DNA from: Desulfobacterales bacterium | Lineage (GTDB): Bacteria > Desulfobacterota > Desulfobacteria > Desulfobacterales > JAFDCJ01 | DNA: 16,251 nucleotides | NCBI GenBank assembly: GCA_020345785.1 | Contig: CP070771.1 | Location: forward strand, 254,597 to 270,847 | Direction: 5' to 3' | Shown here: piece after piece, positions 6,607 through 16,251 of the stretch | How positions within the stretch are numbered: position 1 is the first letter of the stretch | Layout: the number at the start of each line of letters is the position of its first letter | Notes under the pieces: generated by a model | Seen by the model: only the letters and a program-made list of their open reading frames with translations | Told to the model about the DNA's origin: nothing | The model's database searches: none | Position numbers and translations under genes: made by a program

Positions 6607-6644
6607 TCCGATTAACTCGTTTACAACTTCGCAGTTCTTGTGAT

Positions 6645-6674
6645 AGGCGCCCTGATAAAAGGGCGCCTTTCTTT
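6645..6674 (+). terminator. Rho-independent terminator after the YeiH-family gene
   Basis: A perfect 8-bp GC-rich stem (6645-6652 with 6661-6668), an 8-nt loop, and a T-rich tail (6668-6674, one C), 38 nt after the stop codon. It separates the transporter from the cassette starting at 6736. Confidence 0.85.
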
Positions 6675-6735
6675 ATTCAATTGTTTGACAGATGAAGTGA
6701 TTCGATGTTATGCATGCCATCAGGGATGGGGGCCC

Positions 6736-7317
6736 ATGAGCAAATACGAAATGATTTTAGCTGCCGAGAAGCAGTTTGCCAGGGAAGTTACTCTGGGTGT
6801 CATTGTTCAGCAACCGCTATCGGTGTGGCACTATTTGATACCCGGCATGTTCATTTTCGACTTTTTACGCCGGACGTCGGCGATCAGTCGCTACACCAAG
6901 CACTTCATGTTTCCCCGCCAACTGGCGATTGATGCGGCCCAGCATCTTCTGCAGGGCTATGAACAATCAGCCGTCAATTCGCGCATGGCCGCGGACATCG
7001 AAACCTGGCTCAACTCGCTCAAACTTTACTCCCCACAGCTGGCCCAGGCCCAACGGCGCGCCGTTGATCTACTGATCGCCCATTACAGCAAGCTGCTCAG
7101 GGCCGAGGGAAACAGCCATCTCGAGTTAATTGAAAATGCTTACAGCTCCCAAGAGGACTATGAAGCGCATGTTCGCGAACTCACATCGGCCGAAGCGGAA
7201 ATCGACCTGGCCATATTGGAAAAAACGGGAAGCAACGAAAAGCTAAAGGAAAAGTTGCATCTGGAAGCCCAACAAGTTGAATTACGGCGCAACAAAATTT
7301 TGGAAAATATTTTTTAA
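6736..7317 (+). CDS. Uncharacterised protein with single hydrophobic segment, paralogue 1
   Basis: I do not assign a function. The 193-residue protein begins with a short amphipathic stretch, then one hydrophobic segment (about residues 26-46, QPLSVWHYLIPGMFIFDFLR) that could be a monotopic or hairpin membrane anchor, then an alpha-helical, charged C-terminal half with AVDLLIAHYSKLLRAEG (109-125) and a coiled-coil-like tail ending in ENIF. The downstream gene encodes a clear paralogue sharing each of these blocks. The ATG at 6736 follows a purine-rich AGGGATGGGGG. The longer frame from 6640 is rejected because it would start inside the terminator stem region and add 32 unconserved residues. 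It lies 29 nt before the paralogue, so it is probably the first gene of a three-gene operon. Confidence 0.75.
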   Translation: MSKYEMILAAEKQFAREVTLGVIVQQPLSVWHYLIPGMFIFDFLRRTSAISRYTKHFMFPRQLAIDAAQHLLQGYEQSAVNSRMAADIETWLNSLKLYSPQLAQAQRRAVDLLIAHYSKLLRAEGNSHLELIENAYSSQEDYEAHVRELTSAEAEIDLAILEKTGSNEKLKEKLHLEAQQVELRRNKILENIF

Positions 7318-7346: not shown

Positions 7347-7967
7347 TTGTCGTACAAATTGAAAAAAAAATTTAATGTCATCCTTGCCCGGGAAAGTCGG
7401 ATGGCCAAATCCGTTGCCTTGCAAGCGATCAAGCCGAAGCCCTTTTCCGTCTGGGAGGTGTTGATACCGGTTATCTTCATTTTAAGTTTCATGCGGTCAA
7501 AAGAACAGCGTGAAATATTTAGCCAGAATTTGATGTTCACCAAAAAAATGGCTCTGGAAGCCGCCTTTGAGATGCTCAATAAGGAGCAGGCAAAAGAAGC
7601 GGTCATGCGTCGCATTGCGTCCGAAACGCAAAGGCTGCTGTCGGCCGTCCCCAATGGGGTATACTCCGATGCGATCCGGCAAAAACAGCTAAAGGAGATC
7701 GATTTGCTGATTGATCATTACTGCAAGCTGATGCGGGCTGAGGGAGGTGATTATGTCACGCTCGTCGCCAACGCCTATCAGACAAAGGAAAAGTATGCGG
7801 TTTTCCAGGATAAGCTGACGTCCGCCGAACGGGCGGTAACCCAGGCTGCGCGCGAAACCCTGGGCGATCAGACCGACGATCAAATGGCCGCCAGAATCGA
7901 GGCGGCCAGCGGCAAATTCAGAAGGCAAGAGGTCGAAACGATTTTCAGTCCCCATGCACAGCACTAA
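7347..7967 (+). CDS. Uncharacterised protein with single hydrophobic segment, paralogue 2 (TTG start)
   Basis: A 206-residue paralogue of the preceding gene product, of unknown function. Shared blocks in the same order are a hydrophobic segment (31-50, KPFSVWEVLIPVIFILSFMR), EIDLLIDHYCKLMRAEG (117-133), an NAY-x3-E-x-Y stretch followed by LTSAE (about 141-161), and a C-terminus with RRQEVETIF. The N-terminus is lysine-rich (KLKKKF), which would fit the cytoplasmic side of a membrane anchor. The start is TTG at 7347, supported by AGGAG (7337-7341) 5 nt upstream; no ATG is as well placed. It ends 2 nt before the next gene, so translation of the two is likely coupled. Tandem duplication with divergence suggests a hetero-oligomer or two specialised copies. 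Confidence 0.75.
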   Translation: MSYKLKKKFNVILARESRMAKSVALQAIKPKPFSVWEVLIPVIFILSFMRSKEQREIFSQNLMFTKKMALEAAFEMLNKEQAKEAVMRRIASETQRLLSAVPNGVYSDAIRQKQLKEIDLLIDHYCKLMRAEGGDYVTLVANAYQTKEKYAVFQDKLTSAERAVTQAARETLGDQTDDQMAARIEAASGKFRRQEVETIFSPHAQH

Positions 7968-7969
7968 AG

Positions 7970-8794
7970 ATGCTCAGCAAAGAAGAACGCCATCGTATTC
8001 ACCGGCAAGCCTATATACCCGAACACCTTCCGGACTATGTCACAGCGATTTCCGGTGCCAAGCCTTACCTTATTGAAAATCATCTTTGCTTCTGTCACCG
8101 CCGCCACATGATGTTCATTGGTTTTCCATTGGGCGATTCGCCCAGCGATACCGGCCAGGCCTATCTTTCAGCCTGCGAGAGATGCAAACCCGTCACGGTT
8201 TCAATCATTGCTCCTGAGATCTGGCTTGCGGAGGATGATTATGAAAAACAGCCGCCGGACAGCTTTTATCGGCTCAAGCTGCCTCTGAACGCGATTCAGG
8301 CCGAGGTTGCCTACATGGTACGGCGGGCGCAGAGAGATCTCACGATCAGCCGCGGCAAATTCGGCCGTGAACATAAGCGAATCGTCAAAGAATTCTTAAA
8401 AGCTCGTCAACTCACGCCGGAGCAAATTTATCTCTTCGAACACCTTCGCCATTATTTGAAACTTTCACCTTCAGCAGTGCTGCTGGATGCCAGAAAAGGC
8501 AGTGAGCTTGTGGCATTCACCGTCCTGGACCTTGGTGCGGCCGATTATGCATTTTATCTCTTCAACTTCCGCTCATTAAAATTTAATATTCCGGGGGCTT
8601 CGGACCTTCTATTTCGTGAAATGGCGAATATCGCCCAATCTGACGGCAAAAAAGCCATTAATCTTGGGCTGGCAATTAATGCGGGCATTCGCCGTTTTAA
8701 GGAAAAGTGGGGCGGCGTTCCATTTTTGTCCTATAACGCGGCGCTGGTTTACCGGGAGACACCGGATTTAGACGAATTGGCCCGGAAATTATGA
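7970..8794 (+). CDS. GNAT/FemAB-like acyltransferase-fold protein with two Cys pairs
   Basis: A 274-residue protein. The C-terminal half (about 165-262) resembles the GNAT-fold domain of FemAB/peptidoglycan-bridge and lysylphosphatidylglycerol-synthase C-terminal (DUF2156-like) proteins. A beta-rich stretch (AVLLDARKGSELVAFTVLDL) is followed by GASDLLFREM, a KKAINLGLAINAGI segment, and RRFKEKWGGVPF, where K-x-K-W-G is typical of this group. This suggests transfer of an acyl or aminoacyl group to a lipid, cell-wall or protein acceptor; the substrate is unknown. The N-terminal part has C40-x-C42 and C69-x2-C72, a possible metal site not usual in GNAT enzymes. It starts 2 nt after the preceding gene without a clear ribosome-binding site, so coupling is likely. 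Its stop is 1 nt from the stop of the convergent stress-protein gene. Confidence 0.72.
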   Translation: MLSKEERHRIHRQAYIPEHLPDYVTAISGAKPYLIENHLCFCHRRHMMFIGFPLGDSPSDTGQAYLSACERCKPVTVSIIAPEIWLAEDDYEKQPPDSFYRLKLPLNAIQAEVAYMVRRAQRDLTISRGKFGREHKRIVKEFLKARQLTPEQIYLFEHLRHYLKLSPSAVLLDARKGSELVAFTVLDLGAADYAFYLFNFRSLKFNIPGASDLLFREMANIAQSDGKKAINLGLAINAGIRRFKEKWGGVPFLSYNAALVYRETPDLDELARKL

Positions 8795-9970: not shown

Positions 9971-10546
9971 TTATACCATCCCTTTGAAGGCAAAAAAGGT
10001 CAGCGATAGAATCCCGGCCGTTACCAGGGCGATGGAGGTGTCCTGCAGGGGACGGGGAACCCGGGCGAGAAGAATTTTTTCCCGAACACCGGCGAAAAGA
10101 ATCAGGGCCAGGCCGAAACCCACCGCGTAGCTGAAGGATGCCACCAGGGCTTGCATGAAATTATACTCTTCGTTGACATTGATCAGACACACGCCCATAA
10201 CAGCGCAGTTGGTAGTGATCAGGGGAAGGAAGATTCCCAGTCCTGCGTACAGGGCGGGGATACTCTTTTTTAAAAACATCTCAACGAACTGGACAAGAGA
10301 GGCAATCACTAAAATAAACGCCACGGTCCGCAAGTATTCGAGGTCGAATTTAACCAGGAAAAACGTGTTGGTTAACCAGGTGATGACGCCGGCCAGCACC
10401 AGGACGAAGACCACTGCCATGGCCATGCCGATGGCGGTTTCCATTTTCTTGGAGGTTCCCAGAAAGGGGCAGTTGCCCAGGTACTGGGCCAGTAGGATAT
10501 TGTTTATGAGAATACAGCTGATGGCAAGGACAAATAAATCACCCAT
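9971..10546 (-). CDS. rnfA: Rnf electron transport complex subunit RnfA
   Basis: A 191-residue integral membrane subunit with six predicted helices. RnfA and RnfE form the inverted-topology core of Rnf that holds a membrane-embedded [2Fe-2S] cluster. The expected ligands are C26 in LGNCPFLG and C114 in TTNCAVMGVCL. Length and motifs match the family (about 190 residues). AGGAG lies 7 nt before the ATG. It is the last gene of the visible operon, 9 nt after rnfE. In most bacterial rnf operons rnfB comes next, but here only spacer DNA follows. Confidence 0.96.
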   Translation of the reverse strand: MGDLFVLAISCILINNILLAQYLGNCPFLGTSKKMETAIGMAMAVVFVLVLAGVITWLTNTFFLVKFDLEYLRTVAFILVIASLVQFVEMFLKKSIPALYAGLGIFLPLITTNCAVMGVCLINVNEEYNFMQALVASFSYAVGFGLALILFAGVREKILLARVPRPLQDTSIALVTAGILSLTFFAFKGMV

Positions 10547-10555
10547 GTTCGTCTC

Positions 10556-11161
10556 CTATTTTTTGCCGGCCAGATTCATGAGGCACAGCATCAAACCCAG
10601 GGCCATGAAGGCACCGGGGGCCTCGACCATAAATGAAAACGGTTTAAATGAAGGTCCGAAGATCTGAATCGGTGTCACCCAGAATGTGAGCGCGCCGGTT
10701 CCGAGCAATTCCCGCACGGCAGCCAGGGCAATCAGAGCCAACGTAAACCCGACCCCGATACCAAGACCGTCCAACAATGATCGAAACACGCCGTTTTTAG
10801 AGGCGAAAGCTTCGGCCCGGCCCAGTACAATGCAGTTTACCACGATCAACGGTATGAATATGCCGAGCTTGAGAAACAGCGGGTAGGCGTACGCCTGCAT
10901 GAGCAGTTCCACAACGGTGACAAAGGTGGCGATGATCACGATGTAGCAGGCGATGCGGACTTTTGAGGGTATGAGTTTGCGCAATGCCGACACCAGTACG
11001 TTGGAACCCACCAGAACAAAGGTTGTCGCAACTCCCATTCCGATCCCATTTTCTATGGATTTGGTTACGGCAAGGGTCGGGCAGAGGCCCAGCACCAACC
11101 GAAACGGCGGCACTTCATCCCAGAGGCCCTTAACAAATTCCTGAGTAAGAGATTTCGCCAT
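10556..11161 (-). CDS. rnfE: Rnf electron transport complex subunit RnfE
   Basis: A 201-residue polytopic membrane protein homologous to RnfA. It carries LGLCPTLAVT with C27 and VVNCIVLGRAEAFA with C110, the cysteine pair that together with RnfA's binds the intramembrane [2Fe-2S] cluster. The N-terminus EFVKGLWDEVPPFRLVLGLCP is typical of RnfE (wEnNPvfvqlLGlCP in many homologues). An AAGGGGA site precedes the ATG by 6 nt. It sits 10 nt after rnfG and 9 nt before rnfA, in the standard D-G-E-A order. Confidence 0.96.
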   Translation of the reverse strand: MAKSLTQEFVKGLWDEVPPFRLVLGLCPTLAVTKSIENGIGMGVATTFVLVGSNVLVSALRKLIPSKVRIACYIVIIATFVTVVELLMQAYAYPLFLKLGIFIPLIVVNCIVLGRAEAFASKNGVFRSLLDGLGIGVGFTLALIALAAVRELLGTGALTFWVTPIQIFGPSFKPFSFMVEAPGAFMALGLMLCLMNLAGKK

Positions 11162-11171
11162 AAAGTTCCCC

Positions 11172-11765
11172 TTATTTTTTAAAGCCCTTTAATTTATCAT
11201 CGATCTCAGATTTGAGTTTTTCATATATTTTTTCGGCGTCCGTAGTCGCCGCCGATACGGCGCGTGAGGTGATGGTCGCCCCGCTGATGGCATTGATGGA
11301 ACCGCCGTCCGCTGTCACTTTTAGAGGTTCTTTTGCTGACAGATCCTTAAATTGGGCCACAAAGTTCGGATCGGTTTTGGCCTTGGCGCCCATGCCGGGT
11401 GTTTCGCTGTGGGTGGTTACCCCGACGCCCAGCAGTTTATCATCTTTGACGTCGATGCCGACCATTACCCCGACATCGCCGCCGAAGCCCTTGCCTGAAG
11501 TTTCAAAGGCAATACCCCGAGGTTCACCATCGAGGACACCGACAAAAAACGTTCTCTCAACATCCCCGTCCTTTAGGGTGAAACGGTCGGCGATGGGATT
11601 ATTGCCGGCCCCCTCGAAAATGGTCCGGACCGCAGGGCCTTTGACGAACTCCAGCACCTGATTGTCGATCCGTTCCTGGGTGCTGTTGCGCAGGTAGGCG
11701 AGTACGCCCCCCGAAAAGCAGCTCAGAATGGTGAGAACGATGACCATTTTTATCATTTCACGCAT
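11172..11765 (-). CDS. rnfG: Rnf electron transport complex subunit RnfG (covalent FMN protein)
   Basis: A 197-residue protein with one N-terminal transmembrane helix (about 5-25) and a periplasmic FMN-binding domain. It has GKGFGGDVGVMVGID (about 91-105), HSETPGMGAK (119-128) and SGATITS, where T164 of SGAT is the predicted covalent FMN attachment site made by the flavin transferase ApbE. The family consensus has Asp three residues before the Ser of SGAT; here it is Asn (NAISGAT). I chose the ATG at 11765 because AAAGG lies about 9 nt upstream and it starts 1 nt after the rnfD stop. A TTG three codons earlier is possible but overlaps rnfD. No apbE is in the window, so it must be elsewhere. 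Confidence 0.94.
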   Translation of the reverse strand: MREMIKMVIVLTILSCFSGGVLAYLRNSTQERIDNQVLEFVKGPAVRTIFEGAGNNPIADRFTLKDGDVERTFFVGVLDGEPRGIAFETSGKGFGGDVGVMVGIDVKDDKLLGVGVTTHSETPGMGAKAKTDPNFVAQFKDLSAKEPLKVTADGGSINAISGATITSRAVSAATTDAEKIYEKLKSEIDDKLKGFKK

Positions 11766-11766
11766 G

Positions 11767-12726
11767 TTAAACAACCTTTCCCAAAGCTTTTGGTCTAATT
11801 TTGTCCAGCAGGGGATTGATGAGATTGATGACCAGGATGGCCAGGATCACGCCGTCAACATAGGCGCCGATGTTGCGAATCAATACCGTCATGATACCAC
11901 CGGCGGCGCCATAGATGAGCATGGGAACAAACCAGACCGGTGAAGACGAATCATCGGTGGCCAGGAAAAAAGCTCCGATCAGGGTATAACCCGTAAAAAG
12001 ATGAAATCCGGGACCGGCGAAACGGGCCGGATCAATGATGTTGAACAAGAGGGCGGTAAGATACACGCCGGCGATAAACGTCAGAGAAATTTCCCAGCGA
12101 ATGAAGCCGCGGATCATCAGATATACTCCCCCGATGATCAGACCGAGCCCGAAGGTCGATCCGATGGCGCCCGTTTGCCGTCCCATCATCAAATCGCCCA
12201 AGTTAAATGAGTCAATGGAAGACGTTCCGAAATTTTTGACTGCCGTCAGGGGATATACCGCATCGAAATTAAAATCATAGTTCAACAGCATGCCGTTAAA
12301 ATCGAACAGATCCTTCCAGGAAACCATCATGATCGCCACGGTAAGGGCCACCGGATTAAAGGCATTGCTGCCGATGCCGCCAAAAATATGCTTGCCGACG
12401 ACGATGGCGATAAACGTACCGGTAATGACGGCCCACCACGGCATTGTAGCAGGCAGTACCATTGCCAGGAGCAAACCGATCAGGGCGGCATGGCCGTCGC
12501 CGATGGTGGGTGCTTTTTTCATCACTTTATTGATGGCCAGTTCCCAGATCATCGCCGAGGCCACAGACAGACTGACAACTCCAATGACCGGTACGCCGTA
12601 GTAAACGATCCCGGCGATTATCGCAGGCAGGCAGGCCAGCATCGTGTGATAGCTGCGTTCGGTGACTCTGCTGCCGTTGTGCCAGAAAGGGGCGTGTGAT
12701 ACGATTAATTTTTTTTGCTCAAGCAT
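11767..12726 (-). CDS. rnfD: Rnf electron transport complex subunit RnfD (covalent FMN protein)
   Basis: A 319-residue polytopic membrane subunit related to NqrB. Diagnostic stretches are GDGHAALIGLLLAMVLP (about 76-92), GKHIFGGIGSNAFNPVAL (111-128) and the flavinylation region TGAIGSTFGLGLIIGG, in which T191 is the predicted FMN-carrying threonine; further on, FFLATDDSSSPV matches the conserved TD-x-x-S-x-P motif. It forms the ion-translocating part of Rnf together with RnfG, A and E. GGAGG lies about 6 nt before the start. The start overlaps the rnfC stop by 8 nt, indicating translational coupling. Confidence 0.95.
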   Translation of the reverse strand: MLEQKKLIVSHAPFWHNGSRVTERSYHTMLACLPAIIAGIVYYGVPVIGVVSLSVASAMIWELAINKVMKKAPTIGDGHAALIGLLLAMVLPATMPWWAVITGTFIAIVVGKHIFGGIGSNAFNPVALTVAIMMVSWKDLFDFNGMLLNYDFNFDAVYPLTAVKNFGTSSIDSFNLGDLMMGRQTGAIGSTFGLGLIIGGVYLMIRGFIRWEISLTFIAGVYLTALLFNIIDPARFAGPGFHLFTGYTLIGAFFLATDDSSSPVWFVPMLIYGAAGGIMTVLIRNIGAYVDGVILAILVINLINPLLDKIRPKALGKVV

Positions 12727-14005
12727 CCGTTGCCTCCGCGGTTTTAGCCCGGCTCAGTTCATATTTGGCTAACCTGATGTACTGGAATATCGGTATCTTG
12801 GATACGCAGACATAGCTGCACAGTCCGCATTCGACACAGGAATACAGATCGTAGCTGTCGGCAGCTTCTTCATATTGTCCGGCTTCTAAAAATCTAACCA
12901 GCATGTTGACGGCGATTTGAGCAGGACAGGCCCGCACGCAATCGCCGCAATTGATGCAGGGATAATCGGATGTGTAGGCGGCCTTGGCCCGATCCAGCAC
13001 CAGAATGGCATCCGTGTCGGGCAAAACCGGCTGATCCAGTGAATACACCGCCGAACCCGTCATGGGGCCGCCGAATATCACACGGTCTGCTTCGTTGATG
13101 GTGACGTCATACGCTGAGAGAATATCTTTGATGGGAGTTCCAATCGTTGTTTGAATGATGCGCTGATGTTCTTCTTTTGTGGTCAGGGTCATGATTTTGC
13201 GAACCGGGATGTGACCGCTCTGGTAAGCGTCGCCGATCGAAACCACCGCTTCGACGCTTATAAAACAGACGCCCAGATCTTCACAGCTTTTGCCGGCCGG
13301 CACAATTTTTCCCAGGACATTCTTCATGATCATTTGGGGCAGGGCCGCCGGGTAAGTGGTGTCTATGCTTTTGCCGTCCGCTCCGATGTGACCGAAGCCC
13401 TGAAGTGCATCACGGGCCGTGACCAGAATAATGCGTTCGACGCCGGTGATTTGTTTCAGGATCTTGATGCCGGCTTTTAAATCAGCGACGCGGGTTTTGG
13501 TAATATACTGCCGTGTGCCGACAAGCAGATCGCTGTCGACGCCTGTAATAACAATGGTTTTTATCGGGTTGTCAGAGGCGGCCGCCAGTGCGGCCAGCGG
13601 GGGGCTGCCCGGTATGAATGCCAGGTAGTCAAGGGTACTGGCCAGTGTGGGGGATTGGCATTGCGCTGCAAACTGATCGTCCAAGCTTTCATTTTTATCA
13701 ATATTGATGGTGACGGCGCTGTAGGTTTTGCCGAAATCGCCGGTGTGCGGCGAGATGGCAGAGATGGTGCCGCCGGCACTGGCAATGACATAGGCCGGGT
13801 CGTCCGCAAACAGCGAAATTTTCTGGCCGGCTCTGACCTTGTCGCCCACCTGGAAGGAGAAAGGCGCCTTCTGATCAGATTTTTTTGGATGCAGCAGCGT
13901 GACCGTTTTTGATGCCGTCACCGTTTCAGGCTCAGGCAGTCGCGTAGGTAGCAGCTGGTATTCAAATTGCGGAATGAACAGACCGAGGAACGATTTCTTA
14001 AGCAT
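12719..14005 (-). CDS. rnfC: RnfC-like subunit with two [4Fe-4S] motifs but no classical NADH/FMN site
   Basis: A 428-residue soluble, membrane-associated subunit. It has an RnfC N-terminal barrel-sandwich region (QVGDKVRAGQKISLF, about 50-65), a central domain with an SLBB-like part (around YQSGHIPVRKIMTL), a conserved IFGGPMTGSAVY, and two C-terminal cluster motifs: C350-x2-C353-x2-C356-x3-C360-P and C390-x2-C393-x2-C396-x3-C400. In classical RnfC the centre contains GLGGAGFPT, a stretch like N-x-x-ECEPY-x-x-D, and GGEKQ, which bind FMN and NADH. Here the corresponding region reads AFIPGSPPLAAL, VITGVDSDLLVG and YPAALPQMI, so these binding residues are missing. It probably still relays electrons through its clusters but does not bind NADH. 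The gene overlaps rnfD by 8 nt and follows the cytochrome gene by 71 nt. Confidence 0.9.
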   Translation of the reverse strand: MLKKSFLGLFIPQFEYQLLPTRLPEPETVTASKTVTLLHPKKSDQKAPFSFQVGDKVRAGQKISLFADDPAYVIASAGGTISAISPHTGDFGKTYSAVTINIDKNESLDDQFAAQCQSPTLASTLDYLAFIPGSPPLAALAAASDNPIKTIVITGVDSDLLVGTRQYITKTRVADLKAGIKILKQITGVERIILVTARDALQGFGHIGADGKSIDTTYPAALPQMIMKNVLGKIVPAGKSCEDLGVCFISVEAVVSIGDAYQSGHIPVRKIMTLTTKEEHQRIIQTTIGTPIKDILSAYDVTINEADRVIFGGPMTGSAVYSLDQPVLPDTDAILVLDRAKAAYTSDYPCINCGDCVRACPAQIAVNMLVRFLEAGQYEEAADSYDLYSCVECGLCSYVCVSKIPIFQYIRLAKYELSRAKTAEATDA

Positions 14006-14076: not shown

Positions 14077-14466
14077 TTATCTGACATGGCATATGGTGCA
14101 TTCACTTTCAAGCGGTCCGGCACCATATGACTCGTGACAGCCGCCACACTGCTTATGAAAGGCGTCCGCTAGTTTCGGCACTTCTTCATCGCCCTCATCC
14201 GGTTCATGACATTCACTGCACGATCCGGCATCATCATACTCATCTTCAGCAAGCGTATGATGGCAGTCACCGCATGACAACCCGTATCCGTCGGCCGAAT
14301 GATGCTTTTTGTGGTCGAATATTACATTTCCCGCCGTAACCTCATACTTTATGCGAATCGGCTCATGGGGCTTTTGGGGTGGAAACGCCGCATAACACAA
14401 AACGCCGACGAAAAGAAAATAAATGATCAGACCGTATGCCAGTTTCAGCTCGTTTTTTGAAAACAT
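14077..14466 (-). CDS. Membrane-anchored tetraheme c-type cytochrome, Rnf-associated
   Basis: A 129-residue protein with four CXXCH heme-attachment motifs at 65-69 (CGDCH), 83-87 (CSECH), 107-111 (CGGCH) and 123-127 (CTICH). Extra histidines at 52, 55, 56, 70 and 104 could serve as distal ligands, as in class III (c3-like) cytochromes. A single hydrophobic segment (about 8-28) without a convincing cleavage site should anchor it with the hemes in the periplasm. Multiheme cytochromes accompany rnf genes in Desulfobacterota and in Methanosarcina (MmcA), linking Rnf to periplasmic or membrane electron carriers. It lies between the flavoprotein gene and rnfC. The ribosome-binding site is weak: AAGG about 11 nt upstream. 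Confidence 0.93.
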   Translation of the reverse strand: MFSKNELKLAYGLIIYFLFVGVLCYAAFPPQKPHEPIRIKYEVTAGNVIFDHKKHHSADGYGLSCGDCHHTLAEDEYDDAGSCSECHEPDEGDEEVPKLADAFHKQCGGCHESYGAGPLESECTICHVR

Positions 14467-14649: not shown

Positions 14650-16251
14650 TCAGGCGGGCTCGGATTCGGTGCGCAAGTCCTGAATCATCGCCTGATCCGC
14701 ATAGGCCTTGTCCGGGTTGTAGCAGGTGAGACAGCAATACAGACACCGGTTGCTTTCCCCCTGGGCGGCTTCCTCGGATAAAACCTGGTCGACTTCGACA
14801 AAAGAATGAATCCGTTCGGCAACCGGCAGTTCCGGCATGGGGGCCCTTCGGTTTTTAACGACTCCCGGTACCTGGTCGAAAATGGTTTCAGCTATCAGAT
14901 CCTTGGCCAATTCCTTTGGATCCGCACTGACCGGTTGTCCCATGACGTACTGATGAATCGAGCGGGCGGCCCGTCGTCCACCGCCGATGGCAGTTACCAC
15001 CAGGCTTGGGCCGGTGGCCGCATCCCCCGCGGCGAACAGATGGGGAATATTGGACTGCAGGGTTGCAGGATCGACTTCGATGGTATTCCAGCGGGTGGTT
15101 TTAAGTTCCATGACCTGTTCCATGATGCCTTCGGTGAAGGCAACCTCCGGGGATTGGCCGATGGCGGTGATCACCATGTCCGTTTCGATCAGGGTCTCCG
15201 AACCTTCAATGGGGACGGGTCTTCTCCTGCCGCTGGCATCCGGTTCGCCCAACTCCATTTTTAAATATTCAAGATGGGTGACATTGCCGTTATCATCTCC
15301 GATGACGCGAACCGGAGCCGCCAAAAACTGAAATTTGACACCTTCCTCCTCAGCGGCATCGATTTCCACCTCGTTGGCCGGCATTTCATTGCGGGTCCGG
15401 CGATAGACGATGTAAACATTTTCGACTCCCAGCCGGAGCAGATTGCGGGTACAGTCAATGGCCGTATTGCCGCCGCCGATAATAACGGCTGAGCGGCCGA
15501 CCGGTATTTTTTCACCGCCGGCCAGACGCGATAAAAAGTCAATGCCTGTGTAGCACCCTTTCAAATCCTCACCTTCCACCCGCAGTTTTGAATCCTGCCA
15601 GGCGCCGATACCCAGAAAAACGGCATCATAGCCTTTGGCTGCCAGGGATGCCAGGTCAAAATCGCGGCCGAATTTCATATTGGTGTGCGCTTCGATGCCA
15701 AGATTGAGGATGCCTTCGATTTCCCAATCCAGCACCTTTTTGGGCAGCCGGTATTCGGGAATGCCGTAGCGCAGCATGCCGCCCAATTTCGGCATGGCTT
15801 CATATATGGTTACATCGTGTCCCAGTCTTTTCAAAAAGAAAGCACAGGTCAGCCCGGCCGGGCCGCCGCCGACAACCGCCACATGCTTGCCCGTGGAGGG
15901 CGCCACCGGTACCGGCAATCGTTTGCCGGCGTTCATTTCATAATCCGCAGCAAAGCGTTTCAGCTGGTTGATGGAGACCGGATCGTCTTCGATTCCCCTT
16001 CGGCAATTCTCCTCGCAGGGATGCGGACACACCCGGCCGCACGCCAGCAGCAAAGGATTGCGCTCCCGGATCGTGCTGACGGCACCCTCATAGTCGCCCC
16101 CCCGAATTTGAGCGATGTATTTAGGGATATCGATTTCCGCCGGGCAGGTTTGCCGGCAGGGTGCCAGTCGATCATCGGATTGGTTGAAATGCAGAATACG
16201 CTGGGATGCCGTCGTTACATTCATGACACCTTTGGGGCAGATCTGCTCGCA
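14650..16251 (-). CDS. GltD/NfnB-like FAD/NAD(P)H oxidoreductase, C-terminal part of a probable RnfB fusion (5' end outside window)
   Basis: Numbered from the internal ATG at 16224 (524 residues). A Fer4_20-type N-terminal domain has C23, C27, C62, C66, C70 and C74. The FAD site is VAVVGGGPAGL (115-125), the NAD(P)H site is AVIIGGGNTAIDC (246-258) with YRRTRNEMPA (274-283), and a second FAD contact is FAAGDAATGPS (397-407). This is the architecture of the glutamate synthase small subunit and of bifurcating NfnB. The frame does not begin at this ATG: the nine upstream codons to the window edge are open and read CEQICPKGV, the end of a C-x2-C-x2-C-x3-C-P ferredoxin motif of the kind found in RnfB. 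No ribosome-binding site precedes the ATG. A C-terminal RCLYCCLTC (493-501) is unusual. Position ahead of cytochrome and rnfC suggests it feeds the Rnf complex. Confidence 0.85.
   Translation of the reverse strand, partial: CEQICPKGVMNVTTASQRILHFNQSDDRLAPCRQTCPAEIDIPKYIAQIRGGDYEGAVSTIRERNPLLLACGRVCPHPCEENCRRGIEDDPVSINQLKRFAADYEMNAGKRLPVPVAPSTGKHVAVVGGGPAGLTCAFFLKRLGHDVTIYEAMPKLGGMLRYGIPEYRLPKKVLDWEIEGILNLGIEAHTNMKFGRDFDLASLAAKGYDAVFLGIGAWQDSKLRVEGEDLKGCYTGIDFLSRLAGGEKIPVGRSAVIIGGGNTAIDCTRNLLRLGVENVYIVYRRTRNEMPANEVEIDAAEEEGVKFQFLAAPVRVIGDDNGNVTHLEYLKMELGEPDASGRRRPVPIEGSETLIETDMVITAIGQSPEVAFTEGIMEQVMELKTTRWNTIEVDPATLQSNIPHLFAAGDAATGPSLVVTAIGGGRRAARSIHQYVMGQPVSADPKELAKDLIAETIFDQVPGVVKNRRAPMPELPVAERIHSFVEVDQVLSEEAAQGESNRCLYCCLTCYNPDKAYADQAMIQDLRTESEPA

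What the first reader, a model, noticed from the sequence alone, without database searches (positions are those of the whole stretch)
14650..16251. Probable RnfB fused to a GltD/NfnB-like NAD(P)H flavoprotein
Seen: the GltD-like frame is open upstream to the window edge and its last visible codons read CEQICPKGV, the third and fourth Cys of a ferredoxin cluster; the following residues (HFNQSDD) sit where RnfB proteins usually have a V-x-C-x-S-x-D-K-G stretch. Also seen: no rnfB follows rnfA. Known: RnfB carries a membrane helix and ferredoxin clusters and receives electrons from ferredoxin; NfnB-type GltD-like proteins bind FAD and NAD(P)H, and some bifurcate electrons. Inference: one polypeptide joins the ferredoxin-accepting RnfB head with a pyridine-nucleotide flavoprotein, which would let an Rnf pump be driven by, or reduce, NAD(P)H at the RnfB end.
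Basis: partly seen in the sequence, partly recalled or inferred. Interest (0 to 1): 0.78.

Follow-up and report, generated by a model that had tools for sequence, protein, structure and literature searches.

The report
RnfB fused to NAD(P)H flavoprotein
In this sulfate-reducer-type operon, the part of the membrane ion pump Rnf that normally takes electrons from ferredoxin carries an NAD(P)H-handling flavoprotein instead; the arrangement has been reported before, but I found no test of what it does, and the sequences point to a specific testable rewiring.

Summary
The fusion is real. The window holds only the last 9 codons of the RnfB part, but a locus 89% identical (L001) reads through: 712 aa, predicted membrane helix, FeS domain, one Fer4 pair, then a GltD-like FAD/NAD(P)H domain. 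58 of 80 retrieved loci carry the join, isolates among them.

It is not new. "Rnf2", with a ~700-aa RnfB carrying NAD sites and an RnfC lacking NADH domains, is in print for Desulfobacula toluolica, Desulfococcus multivorans and Desulfobacteraceae; its mode of action is described there as unverified.

What I add: (1) the fusion stands in place of RnfB's C-terminal cluster pair, the proposed ferredoxin dock; (2) RnfC of the 46 fused operons aligned lacks the FMN/NADH loops but keeps both [4Fe-4S] motifs; (3) 4 of 24 unfused relatives have lost the loops too, so the loss is broader than the fusion; (4) the GltD domain is nearest to StnC-type NADPH input modules and has their ligand Lys, not Nfn's Glu; (5) bins labelled SAR324, Krumholzibacteriia and Acidobacteriota have it.

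Best reading: an NAD(P)H-driven Rnf whose electrons leave to a periplasmic cytochrome or an unknown RnfC partner, convergent with Nqr. The electron path is inferred; nothing was tested biochemically.

The parts
14650..16251 (-). 3' part of the fused rnfB (RnfB-GltD); 5' end beyond the window edge
16225..16251 (-). last visible codons of the RnfB Fer4 pair (CEQICPKGV)
15928..16164 (-). Fer4_20, the [4Fe-4S] domain of GltD/NfnB-type proteins
   Evidence: (residues 30-108)
15958..15960 (-). Lys codon at the StnC K170 position (Glu in NfnB)
   Evidence: invariant in the 30 rows of A2
14977..15885 (-). Pyr_redox_2: FAD- and NAD(P)H-binding Rossmann domains, with YRR after the GGGNTA motif
14731..14868 (-). 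C-terminal segment matching the N-terminus of NfnB (RCLxC loop), i.e. order permuted as in StnC
14077..14466 (-). tetraheme (4 CxxCH) class III cytochrome c with a hydrophobic N-terminal stretch
12719..14005 (-). rnfC, FMN/NADH loops absent, both [4Fe-4S] motifs kept
13580..13636 (-). rnfC stretch where C. tetanomorphum RnfC has AGIVGMGGATFPTHVKLAP (here TLDYLAFIPGSPPLAALAA)
   Evidence: one search aligns it two columns shifted
13499..13558 (-). rnfC stretch where C. tetanomorphum RnfC has SIVVNAAECEPYLTCDHRMM (here TIVITGVDSDLLVGTRQYIT)
11767..12726 (-). rnfD; Thr at the covalent-FMN position kept
11172..11774 (-). rnfG; Thr of the flavin-binding GATIT motif kept
10556..11161 (-). rnfE; Cys aligned to both A. 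woodii cluster Cys kept
9971..10546 (-). rnfA; both cluster Cys kept; no rnfB follows

Best explanation
An Rnf2-type complex in which the pyridine-nucleotide site has moved from RnfC to RnfB. NAD(P)H (probably NADPH) binds the GltD-like domain. FAD takes the hydride and passes single electrons through that domain's clusters into the RnfB Fer4 pair and the membrane-proximal FeS cluster, then to the RnfA/E [2Fe-2S] and the RnfG/RnfD flavins, pumping Na+ or H+ as in other Rnf. Because RnfC has lost its FMN/NADH loops, electrons leave elsewhere: most likely from RnfG to the operon's tetraheme cytochrome, or through the RnfC clusters to an unidentified partner. Shown: domain order, absence of the distal RnfB clusters, loss of the RnfC loops, intact ligands of the membrane chain, cytochrome gene in the window-type operons. 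Inferred: NADPH over NADH, direction of flow, the acceptor, pumping.
For: Fusion. RnfC loops absent in 39 of 39 window-type rows; of 7 other fused rows, 6 of 6 with the first stretch visible and 7 of 7 for the second; both [4Fe-4S] motifs in 46 of 46 (L002's 104-aa fragment not aligned). Ligands of the membrane chain kept. No second Fer4-type motif after the first pair in 65 of 65 fused frames scanned (60 without any pattern hit there; the 5 hits are the first pair in a longer frame or, in L054, also the Fer4_20 motif), whereas the five unfused RnfB on the same side of the tree all have it. The A. woodii paper places ferredoxin docking near B1-B2 and calls the RnfB C-terminus a fishing hook (PMC11889175, passages). 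Cytochrome gene in 38 of 38 window-type loci with a full rnfC. Nearest solved relatives of the GltD part: 9bov_A, 9n5u_A, 8oh5_C by sequence and by fold. StnC shuttles electrons from NADPH linearly and its K170 appears to coordinate the cluster next to FAD (PMC10482914, passages); the Lys is invariant in 30 of 30 aligned fusions. Precedents: M. acetivorans Rnf does not use NAD(P) and works with a cytochrome c (PMC4023990, passages); Nqr oxidises NADH at the RnfB-side subunit and its RnfC homologue lost its cofactors (PMC11889175).
Against: No biochemistry. No frame with two or more CxxCH was found in the stretches of fused loci L046, L047, L054, L067, L072, L121, L125, L136 and L147 (L136 is cut close upstream of rnfC), so the cytochrome cannot be shown to be the general acceptor. 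In D. alaskensis mutants of the cytochrome gene had no fitness effect on ethanol, formate or H2 (reported in PMC4841214). RnfC still keeps two clusters, unexplained if electrons leave at RnfG. The A. vinelandii RnfB is short (174 aa) and not all unfused RnfB have a full second pair (7 of 14 examined), so ferredoxin might dock on what remains. PMC11887813 itself links Rnf2 to the ferredoxin and NADH pools. The AlphaFold model of the fusion is weak (pLDDT 71).
Confidence: 0.55

Rival explanations
1. Opposite direction or swapped polarity: reduced ferredoxin delivers electrons, at the remaining RnfB clusters or at the RnfC clusters, and the GltD domain reduces NADP+. Rnf2 is then a ferredoxin:NADP+ pump or a tethered ferredoxin:NADP+ reductase.
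For: RnfC keeps both [4Fe-4S] motifs without the nucleotide loops, leaving a possible ferredoxin port; the StnABC complex also reduces NADP+ (PMC10482914); some unfused RnfB are short.
Against: The cluster pair near which ferredoxin is proposed to dock is absent; a cytochrome gene accompanies the window-type operons.
Confidence: 0.2
2. Bifurcation or confurcation: the FAD splits or merges electrons between NADPH, the RnfB chain and ferredoxin, as NfnB does.
For: Related fold to NfnB; the Arg at the NfnB R201 position is invariant.
Against: That Arg is also in StnC, which does not bifurcate; the residue at the ligand position is Lys as in StnC, not Glu; no NfnA-like (FNR-type) domain among the 16 window frames scanned.
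Confidence: 0.12
3. The GltD domain is inert or regulatory on an ordinary ferredoxin:NAD+ Rnf.
For: Related stand-alone fusions (L119, L129, L131, L142) have a changed second Rossmann motif, so decay happens.
Against: In the 30 aligned fusions the GGGN motif, Arg residues and cluster Cys are invariant, and it is RnfC that lacks the NAD loops.
Confidence: 0.08

Closest known systems
Rnf2 (large-RnfB Rnf) of Desulfobacula toluolica Tol2, Desulfococcus multivorans and Desulfobacteraceae
   Same: ~700-aa RnfB with NAD-binding sites, RnfC without NADH domains, small cytochrome in the D. multivorans cluster (PMC5109826, section 23 read; PMC11887813, passages)
   Different: Gene order: in the window, L001, L002 and L011 the fused rnfB precedes the cytochrome and rnfC; in the other window-type loci with both, it follows rnfA
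Canonical ferredoxin:NAD+ Rnf (A. woodii 9eri, C. tetanomorphum 7zc6, A. vinelandii 8ahx)
   Same: RnfA/E/D/G cofactor ligands and the RnfC fold
   Different: RnfC lacks the FMN/NADH loops; RnfB lacks the distal clusters and carries GltD
StnC of StnABC (8oh5) and Nfn-ABC (9bov, 9n5u)
   Same: GltD-like FAD/NAD(P)H domain; with StnC and 9bov_A also the C-terminal cluster segment and Lys at the K170 position
   Different: Attached to a membrane RnfB, not to a NuoG-like domain
Na+-NQR
   Same: Nucleotide-oxidising flavin domain at the RnfB-side end, RnfC homologue without FMN/NADH chemistry
   Different: NqrF is an FNR-type domain; NqrA also lost its clusters
M. acetivorans Rnf with cytochrome c
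   Same: Cytochrome-linked Rnf that does not use NAD(P)
   Different: Donor is ferredoxin; its RnfB is not fused (recalled)

Membership tests
Rnf2 / Tol2-type Rnf | RnfB of ~700 aa with FeS/Fer4 plus NAD-binding domains | tested here: met
   Seen in L001 (712 aa); the window shows the matching 3' part only
Rnf2 / Tol2-type Rnf | RnfC lacking the NADH-binding (51K) and SLBB domains | tested here: met
   51K 24.1 bits, below its cut-off of 31.2, and no SLBB; canonical L085 has both; loops absent
Rnf2 / Tol2-type Rnf | cytochrome in the gene cluster | tested here: met
   14077-14466
Ferredoxin:NAD+ oxidoreductase (canonical Rnf) | FMN/NADH site in RnfC | tested here: not met
   Judged by sequence loops only
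Ferredoxin:NAD+ oxidoreductase (canonical Rnf) | measured Fd:NAD+ activity | not testable with these tools
   -
Bifurcating NfnB | Glu at the cluster-ligand position | tested here: not met
   Lys there, Glu in 5jca_L and 4ylf_B; that the Glu is a ligand in NfnB is recalled
Bifurcating NfnB | an NfnA partner | tested here: inconclusive
   None among 16 window frames scanned; the rest of the genome is not held
StnC-type NADPH input domain | GltD fold with C-terminal cluster segment and ligand Lys | tested here: met
StnC-type NADPH input domain | NADPH specificity | tested here: inconclusive
   YRR stretch shared with the relatives; not a specificity test
Rnf complex (any) | RnfA/E cluster Cys and RnfG/RnfD covalent-flavin Thr | tested here: met

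The most novel reading that the evidence does not exclude
There is a large Rnf superclade without the RnfC nucleotide site: RnfC lost the FMN/NADH loops before or alongside the fusion, and the clade includes unfused, mostly cytochrome-bearing Rnf and, by the RnfG model named for DVU2794, probably Desulfovibrio vulgaris (PMC11887813 instead groups Desulfovibrionaceae with ordinary Rnf1). Within it a single fusion put an NADPH module in place of the ferredoxin-docking end of RnfB, giving an NADPH:cytochrome ion pump convergent with Nqr. The usual ferredoxin:NAD+ label would then be wrong for much of sulfate-reducer Rnf.
Probability: 0.4. Interest if true: 0.75.

Novelty: new member of a known kind. 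Interest (0 to 1): 0.5.

Why it matters
Rnf2 is reported as part of the Desulfobacteraceae core genome and as abundant in all six strains studied (PMC11887813, passages), a family credited with much of seabed sulfate-dependent carbon oxidation (its abstract), yet its donor and acceptor are described as unknown (PMC5109826). If the donor is NADPH and the exit a cytochrome, energy budgets of these bacteria change, and the complex is a second, independent case of turning Rnf into an NAD(P)H-driven pump.

Tried and rejected
Upstream domains of another family (NuoG, Hdr, Fdh): rejected for this gene, though 19 of 80 retrieved GltD relatives have something else upstream. Artefact or chimeric contig: rejected, many contigs and isolates share the join. 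A strict one-to-one link of RnfC loop loss with fusion: rejected, since 4 of 24 unfused loci with a visible RnfC have lost the loops too (L127, L138, L140, L146). In one of these (L140) the 51K domain still scores above its cut-off (69.1 against 31.2), so its loss rests on the loop residues alone. Apparent exception L091 (loops lost, RnfB unseen) turned out to be a fused operon when extended (L148). Cytochrome as universal partner: not supported. Atomic distances between clusters: not possible, as no coordinates are given. SECIS folding of the RnfE TGA: energies not better than shuffles (z -1.16 and -0.67). D. vulgaris and D. alaskensis RnfC themselves were not retrieved; the nearest named are Desulfonatronovibrio and Desulfonatronum, whose RnfB was not seen.

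Rows left out: the RnfA/E/D tree used 15 of 38 window-type rows, and for the two TGA-split RnfE (L127, L140) only one piece. The GltD tree used 15 of the 19 other GltD-like loci, and 30 fused ones. Alignment A2 has 30 rows; five of the 35 first listed (L003, L030, L034, L049, L074) were left out, two of them after an error on their coordinates. L072 fell out of the scan because of runs of N, which also hide its rnfC region. The sample missed at least one known fused gene (the Rnf2 operon of L015, genome G002), so its count of fusions is a lower bound.

Papers: Wohlbrand et al. 2013 (Tol2) was not seen, only as cited in PMC5109826.

Full report
What is there. The minus-strand frame at 14650-16251 is open at the window edge and begins with the last codons of a Fer4 pair. 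It continues into Fer4_20 and Pyr_redox_2. Downstream on the same strand lie a tetraheme class III cytochrome, rnfC, rnfD, rnfG, rnfE and rnfA. The window's own genome is not held, so the missing 5' end was read in relatives. L001 (Olavius-associated MAG) has the same gene order, 89% identity over all 533 codons, and an ATG 179 codons upstream. Its 712-aa product has a predicted N-terminal helix (residues 6-32), FeS, Fer4_7, Fer4_20 and Pyr_redox_2.

How common. Of 80 loci retrieved with the window protein, 57 have both parts in one frame, plus L072. They include isolates: Desulfocicer vacuolatum (L015), Desulfobacter latus (L037), Desulfocarbo indianensis (L054). They also include bins labelled SAR324 (L048, L049), Krumholzibacteriia (L050) and Acidobacteriota (L072). 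The fused gene is not always in an rnf operon: L005 shows no other rnf gene in 17.8 kb. In a separate sample of 198 genomes of the phylum of G002, 35 had an rnfB hit at E <= 1e-20, at 37 places; 12 of the 37 are fused and 25 are not. That cut-off missed at least the Rnf2 gene of L015, so 12 is a lower bound.

Already published. PMC5109826 (section 23 read) states that D. toluolica Tol2 has an RnfB of ~700 aa with NAD-binding sites and an RnfC lacking the NADH and soluble ligand-binding domains, that D. multivorans has both types (Rnf1, Rnf2) and a cytochrome in the rnf2 cluster, and that the mode of action awaits verification. PMC11887813 (passages) reports Rnf2 in the Desulfobacteraceae core genome and abundant in all six strains. 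The fusion is therefore known; this locus is a member.

RnfC. RnfC of C. tetanomorphum and the canonical loci carry AGIVGMGGATFPTHVKL-like and NAAECEPYLTCDHRMM-like stretches. The window has neither. Across 46 RnfC of fused operons none has them: 39 window-type rows, and 7 others of which L049 is cut before the first stretch. All 46 keep both [4Fe-4S] motifs. Five further loci with a fusion and a visible RnfC agree (L121, L125, L129, L136, L147); in L129 that RnfC belongs to a separate rnf operon 6.7 kb away on the other strand, and L125 duplicates L046. The model of the window RnfC is good (pLDDT 89) and matches solved RnfC first, then NqrA.

Unfused controls. Of 25 unfused loci, RnfC is visible in 24: 20 keep the loops (18 by pattern; L143 and L144 with a small variant) and 4 do not (L127, L138, L140, L146). 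Three of those four have a tetraheme cytochrome gene upstream (L127, L140, L146). In L140 the 51K domain still passes its cut-off, so the loss there is of loop residues only. Named proteins of this kind are Desulfonatronovibrio and Desulfonatronum RnfC. On a tree of RnfA/E/D the 20 canonical rows and the 34 others part at a branch with support 99 (the other side holds 29 fused rows, the 4 site-less unfused ones and L135, whose RnfC is not visible). 28 fused rows group at 87, below the starred level, with fused L055 outside and unresolved. On a tree of the GltD domain 30 fused rows part from 15 other GltD-like proteins at 94, also below the starred level. One loss of the RnfC loops and one fusion are thus the simplest account, the second less firmly. 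The NCBIfam model RnfG_DVU2794 scores 184-258 bits in seven rows of the site-less side and 96-126 in four canonical rows, which suggests that D. vulgaris belongs to the site-less side. Its RnfC was not seen, and PMC11887813 places Desulfovibrionaceae with Rnf1.

RnfB. Of 14 unfused RnfB examined, 7 have at least two full cluster motifs after the first pair, 4 one, and 3 none by pattern; the five unfused ones on the site-less side all have two. Of 65 fused frames scanned, none has a second Fer4-type motif there: 60 gave no pattern hit, and the hits in the other 5 are the first pair in a longer frame or, in L054, also the Fer4_20 motif. In A. woodii the C-terminal part near clusters B1-B2 is the proposed docking place of ferredoxin (PMC11889175, passages). 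The flavoprotein thus stands where ferredoxin is thought to bind.

The flavoprotein. The nearest solved chains are Nfn-ABC 9bov_A and 9n5u_A and StnC 8oh5_C, ahead of NfnB. As in StnC and 9bov_A, the segment with the RCLxC loop is at the C-terminus, where NfnB has it at the N-terminus. In StnC the GltD domain oxidises NADPH and passes electrons linearly, and K170 appears to coordinate the cluster next to FAD (PMC10482914, passages). By position count in the alignment, K170 falls on the Lys of QLKRF, invariant in 30 of 30 aligned fusions. The two NfnB shown have Glu there. This favours plain electron input over bifurcation.

Mechanism. Shown: domain order, absence of the distal RnfB clusters, loss of the RnfC loops, intact ligands at RnfA/E, RnfG and RnfD, cytochrome gene in 38 of 38 window-type loci with a full rnfC. 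Inferred: NADPH -> FAD -> [4Fe-4S] clusters -> RnfB Fer4 pair -> FeS cluster -> RnfA/E -> RnfG -> cytochrome, with ion pumping. Support from other systems: M. acetivorans Rnf does not use NAD(P) and is proposed to pass electrons from RnfG to cytochrome c (PMC4023990, passages). Nqr takes NADH at the RnfB-side subunit and has a cofactor-less RnfC homologue. Attempts to show ferredoxin:NAD+ coupling in D. alaskensis vesicles were unsuccessful (PMC4841214, passage). Against: nine fused loci show no multiheme frame, mutants of the D. alaskensis cytochrome gene had no fitness effect under three conditions, and the RnfC clusters remain unexplained.

Literature reach. Searches listed papers of which I read passages or one section of some. 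No passage read states the RnfC loop loss in unfused relatives, the absence of the docking clusters, or the StnC-type Lys. Wohlbrand 2013 was not available, and supplementary files were not open to me.

Noticed in passing
L127 8089-8727 (+), L140 8117-8722 (+), L151 (G026:C2:107665-108231, -): Candidate selenoprotein RnfE: one in-frame TGA exactly at the Cys aligned to A. woodii RnfE C108, a ligand of the membrane [2Fe-2S] cluster. 3 of the 4 rnfE-bearing genomes of that order have it, the fourth has Cys. selB is present in the 5 genomes tested, which include those of L127 and L140 but not that of L151. A hairpin starts 12 nt after the TGA, but the folding energy is not better than shuffles. 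A search for selenocysteine with RnfE listed two papers, not opened.
   Followed up: partly
L115, L119, L131, L142 (and L129 7606-9654): Stand-alone RnfB-GltD proteins with no other rnf gene found in the stretch (L129: 6.7 kb from an rnfC on the other strand). L119, L129, L131 and L142 have a changed second Rossmann motif and form one group. In L142 (genome of Desulfocicer vacuolatum) it sits beside a two-piece gene that reads by eye like a formate dehydrogenase.
   Followed up: partly
L048 5319-7613 (765 aa; same gene in L092): In a SAR324 bin RnfC and RnfD appear to be one polypeptide.
   Followed up: no
L048 11545-13197, L049 6073-7596, L050 4691-5368, L055 3673-4560: Frames with 16 (SAR324) or 8 CxxCH motifs directly beside other fused rnf operons, different from the tetraheme one of the window.
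   Followed up: no
window 14650-16251, L001, L002, L011: In this lineage the fused rnfB stands upstream of the cytochrome-rnfC genes; in the other window-type loci it follows rnfA.
   Followed up: no
window 6640-7317 and 7347-7967: Two neighbouring, similar-looking frames without a Pfam match, followed by a frame with a weak lysyltransferase match (7970-8794); similar frames stand near the operon in L001.
   Followed up: no
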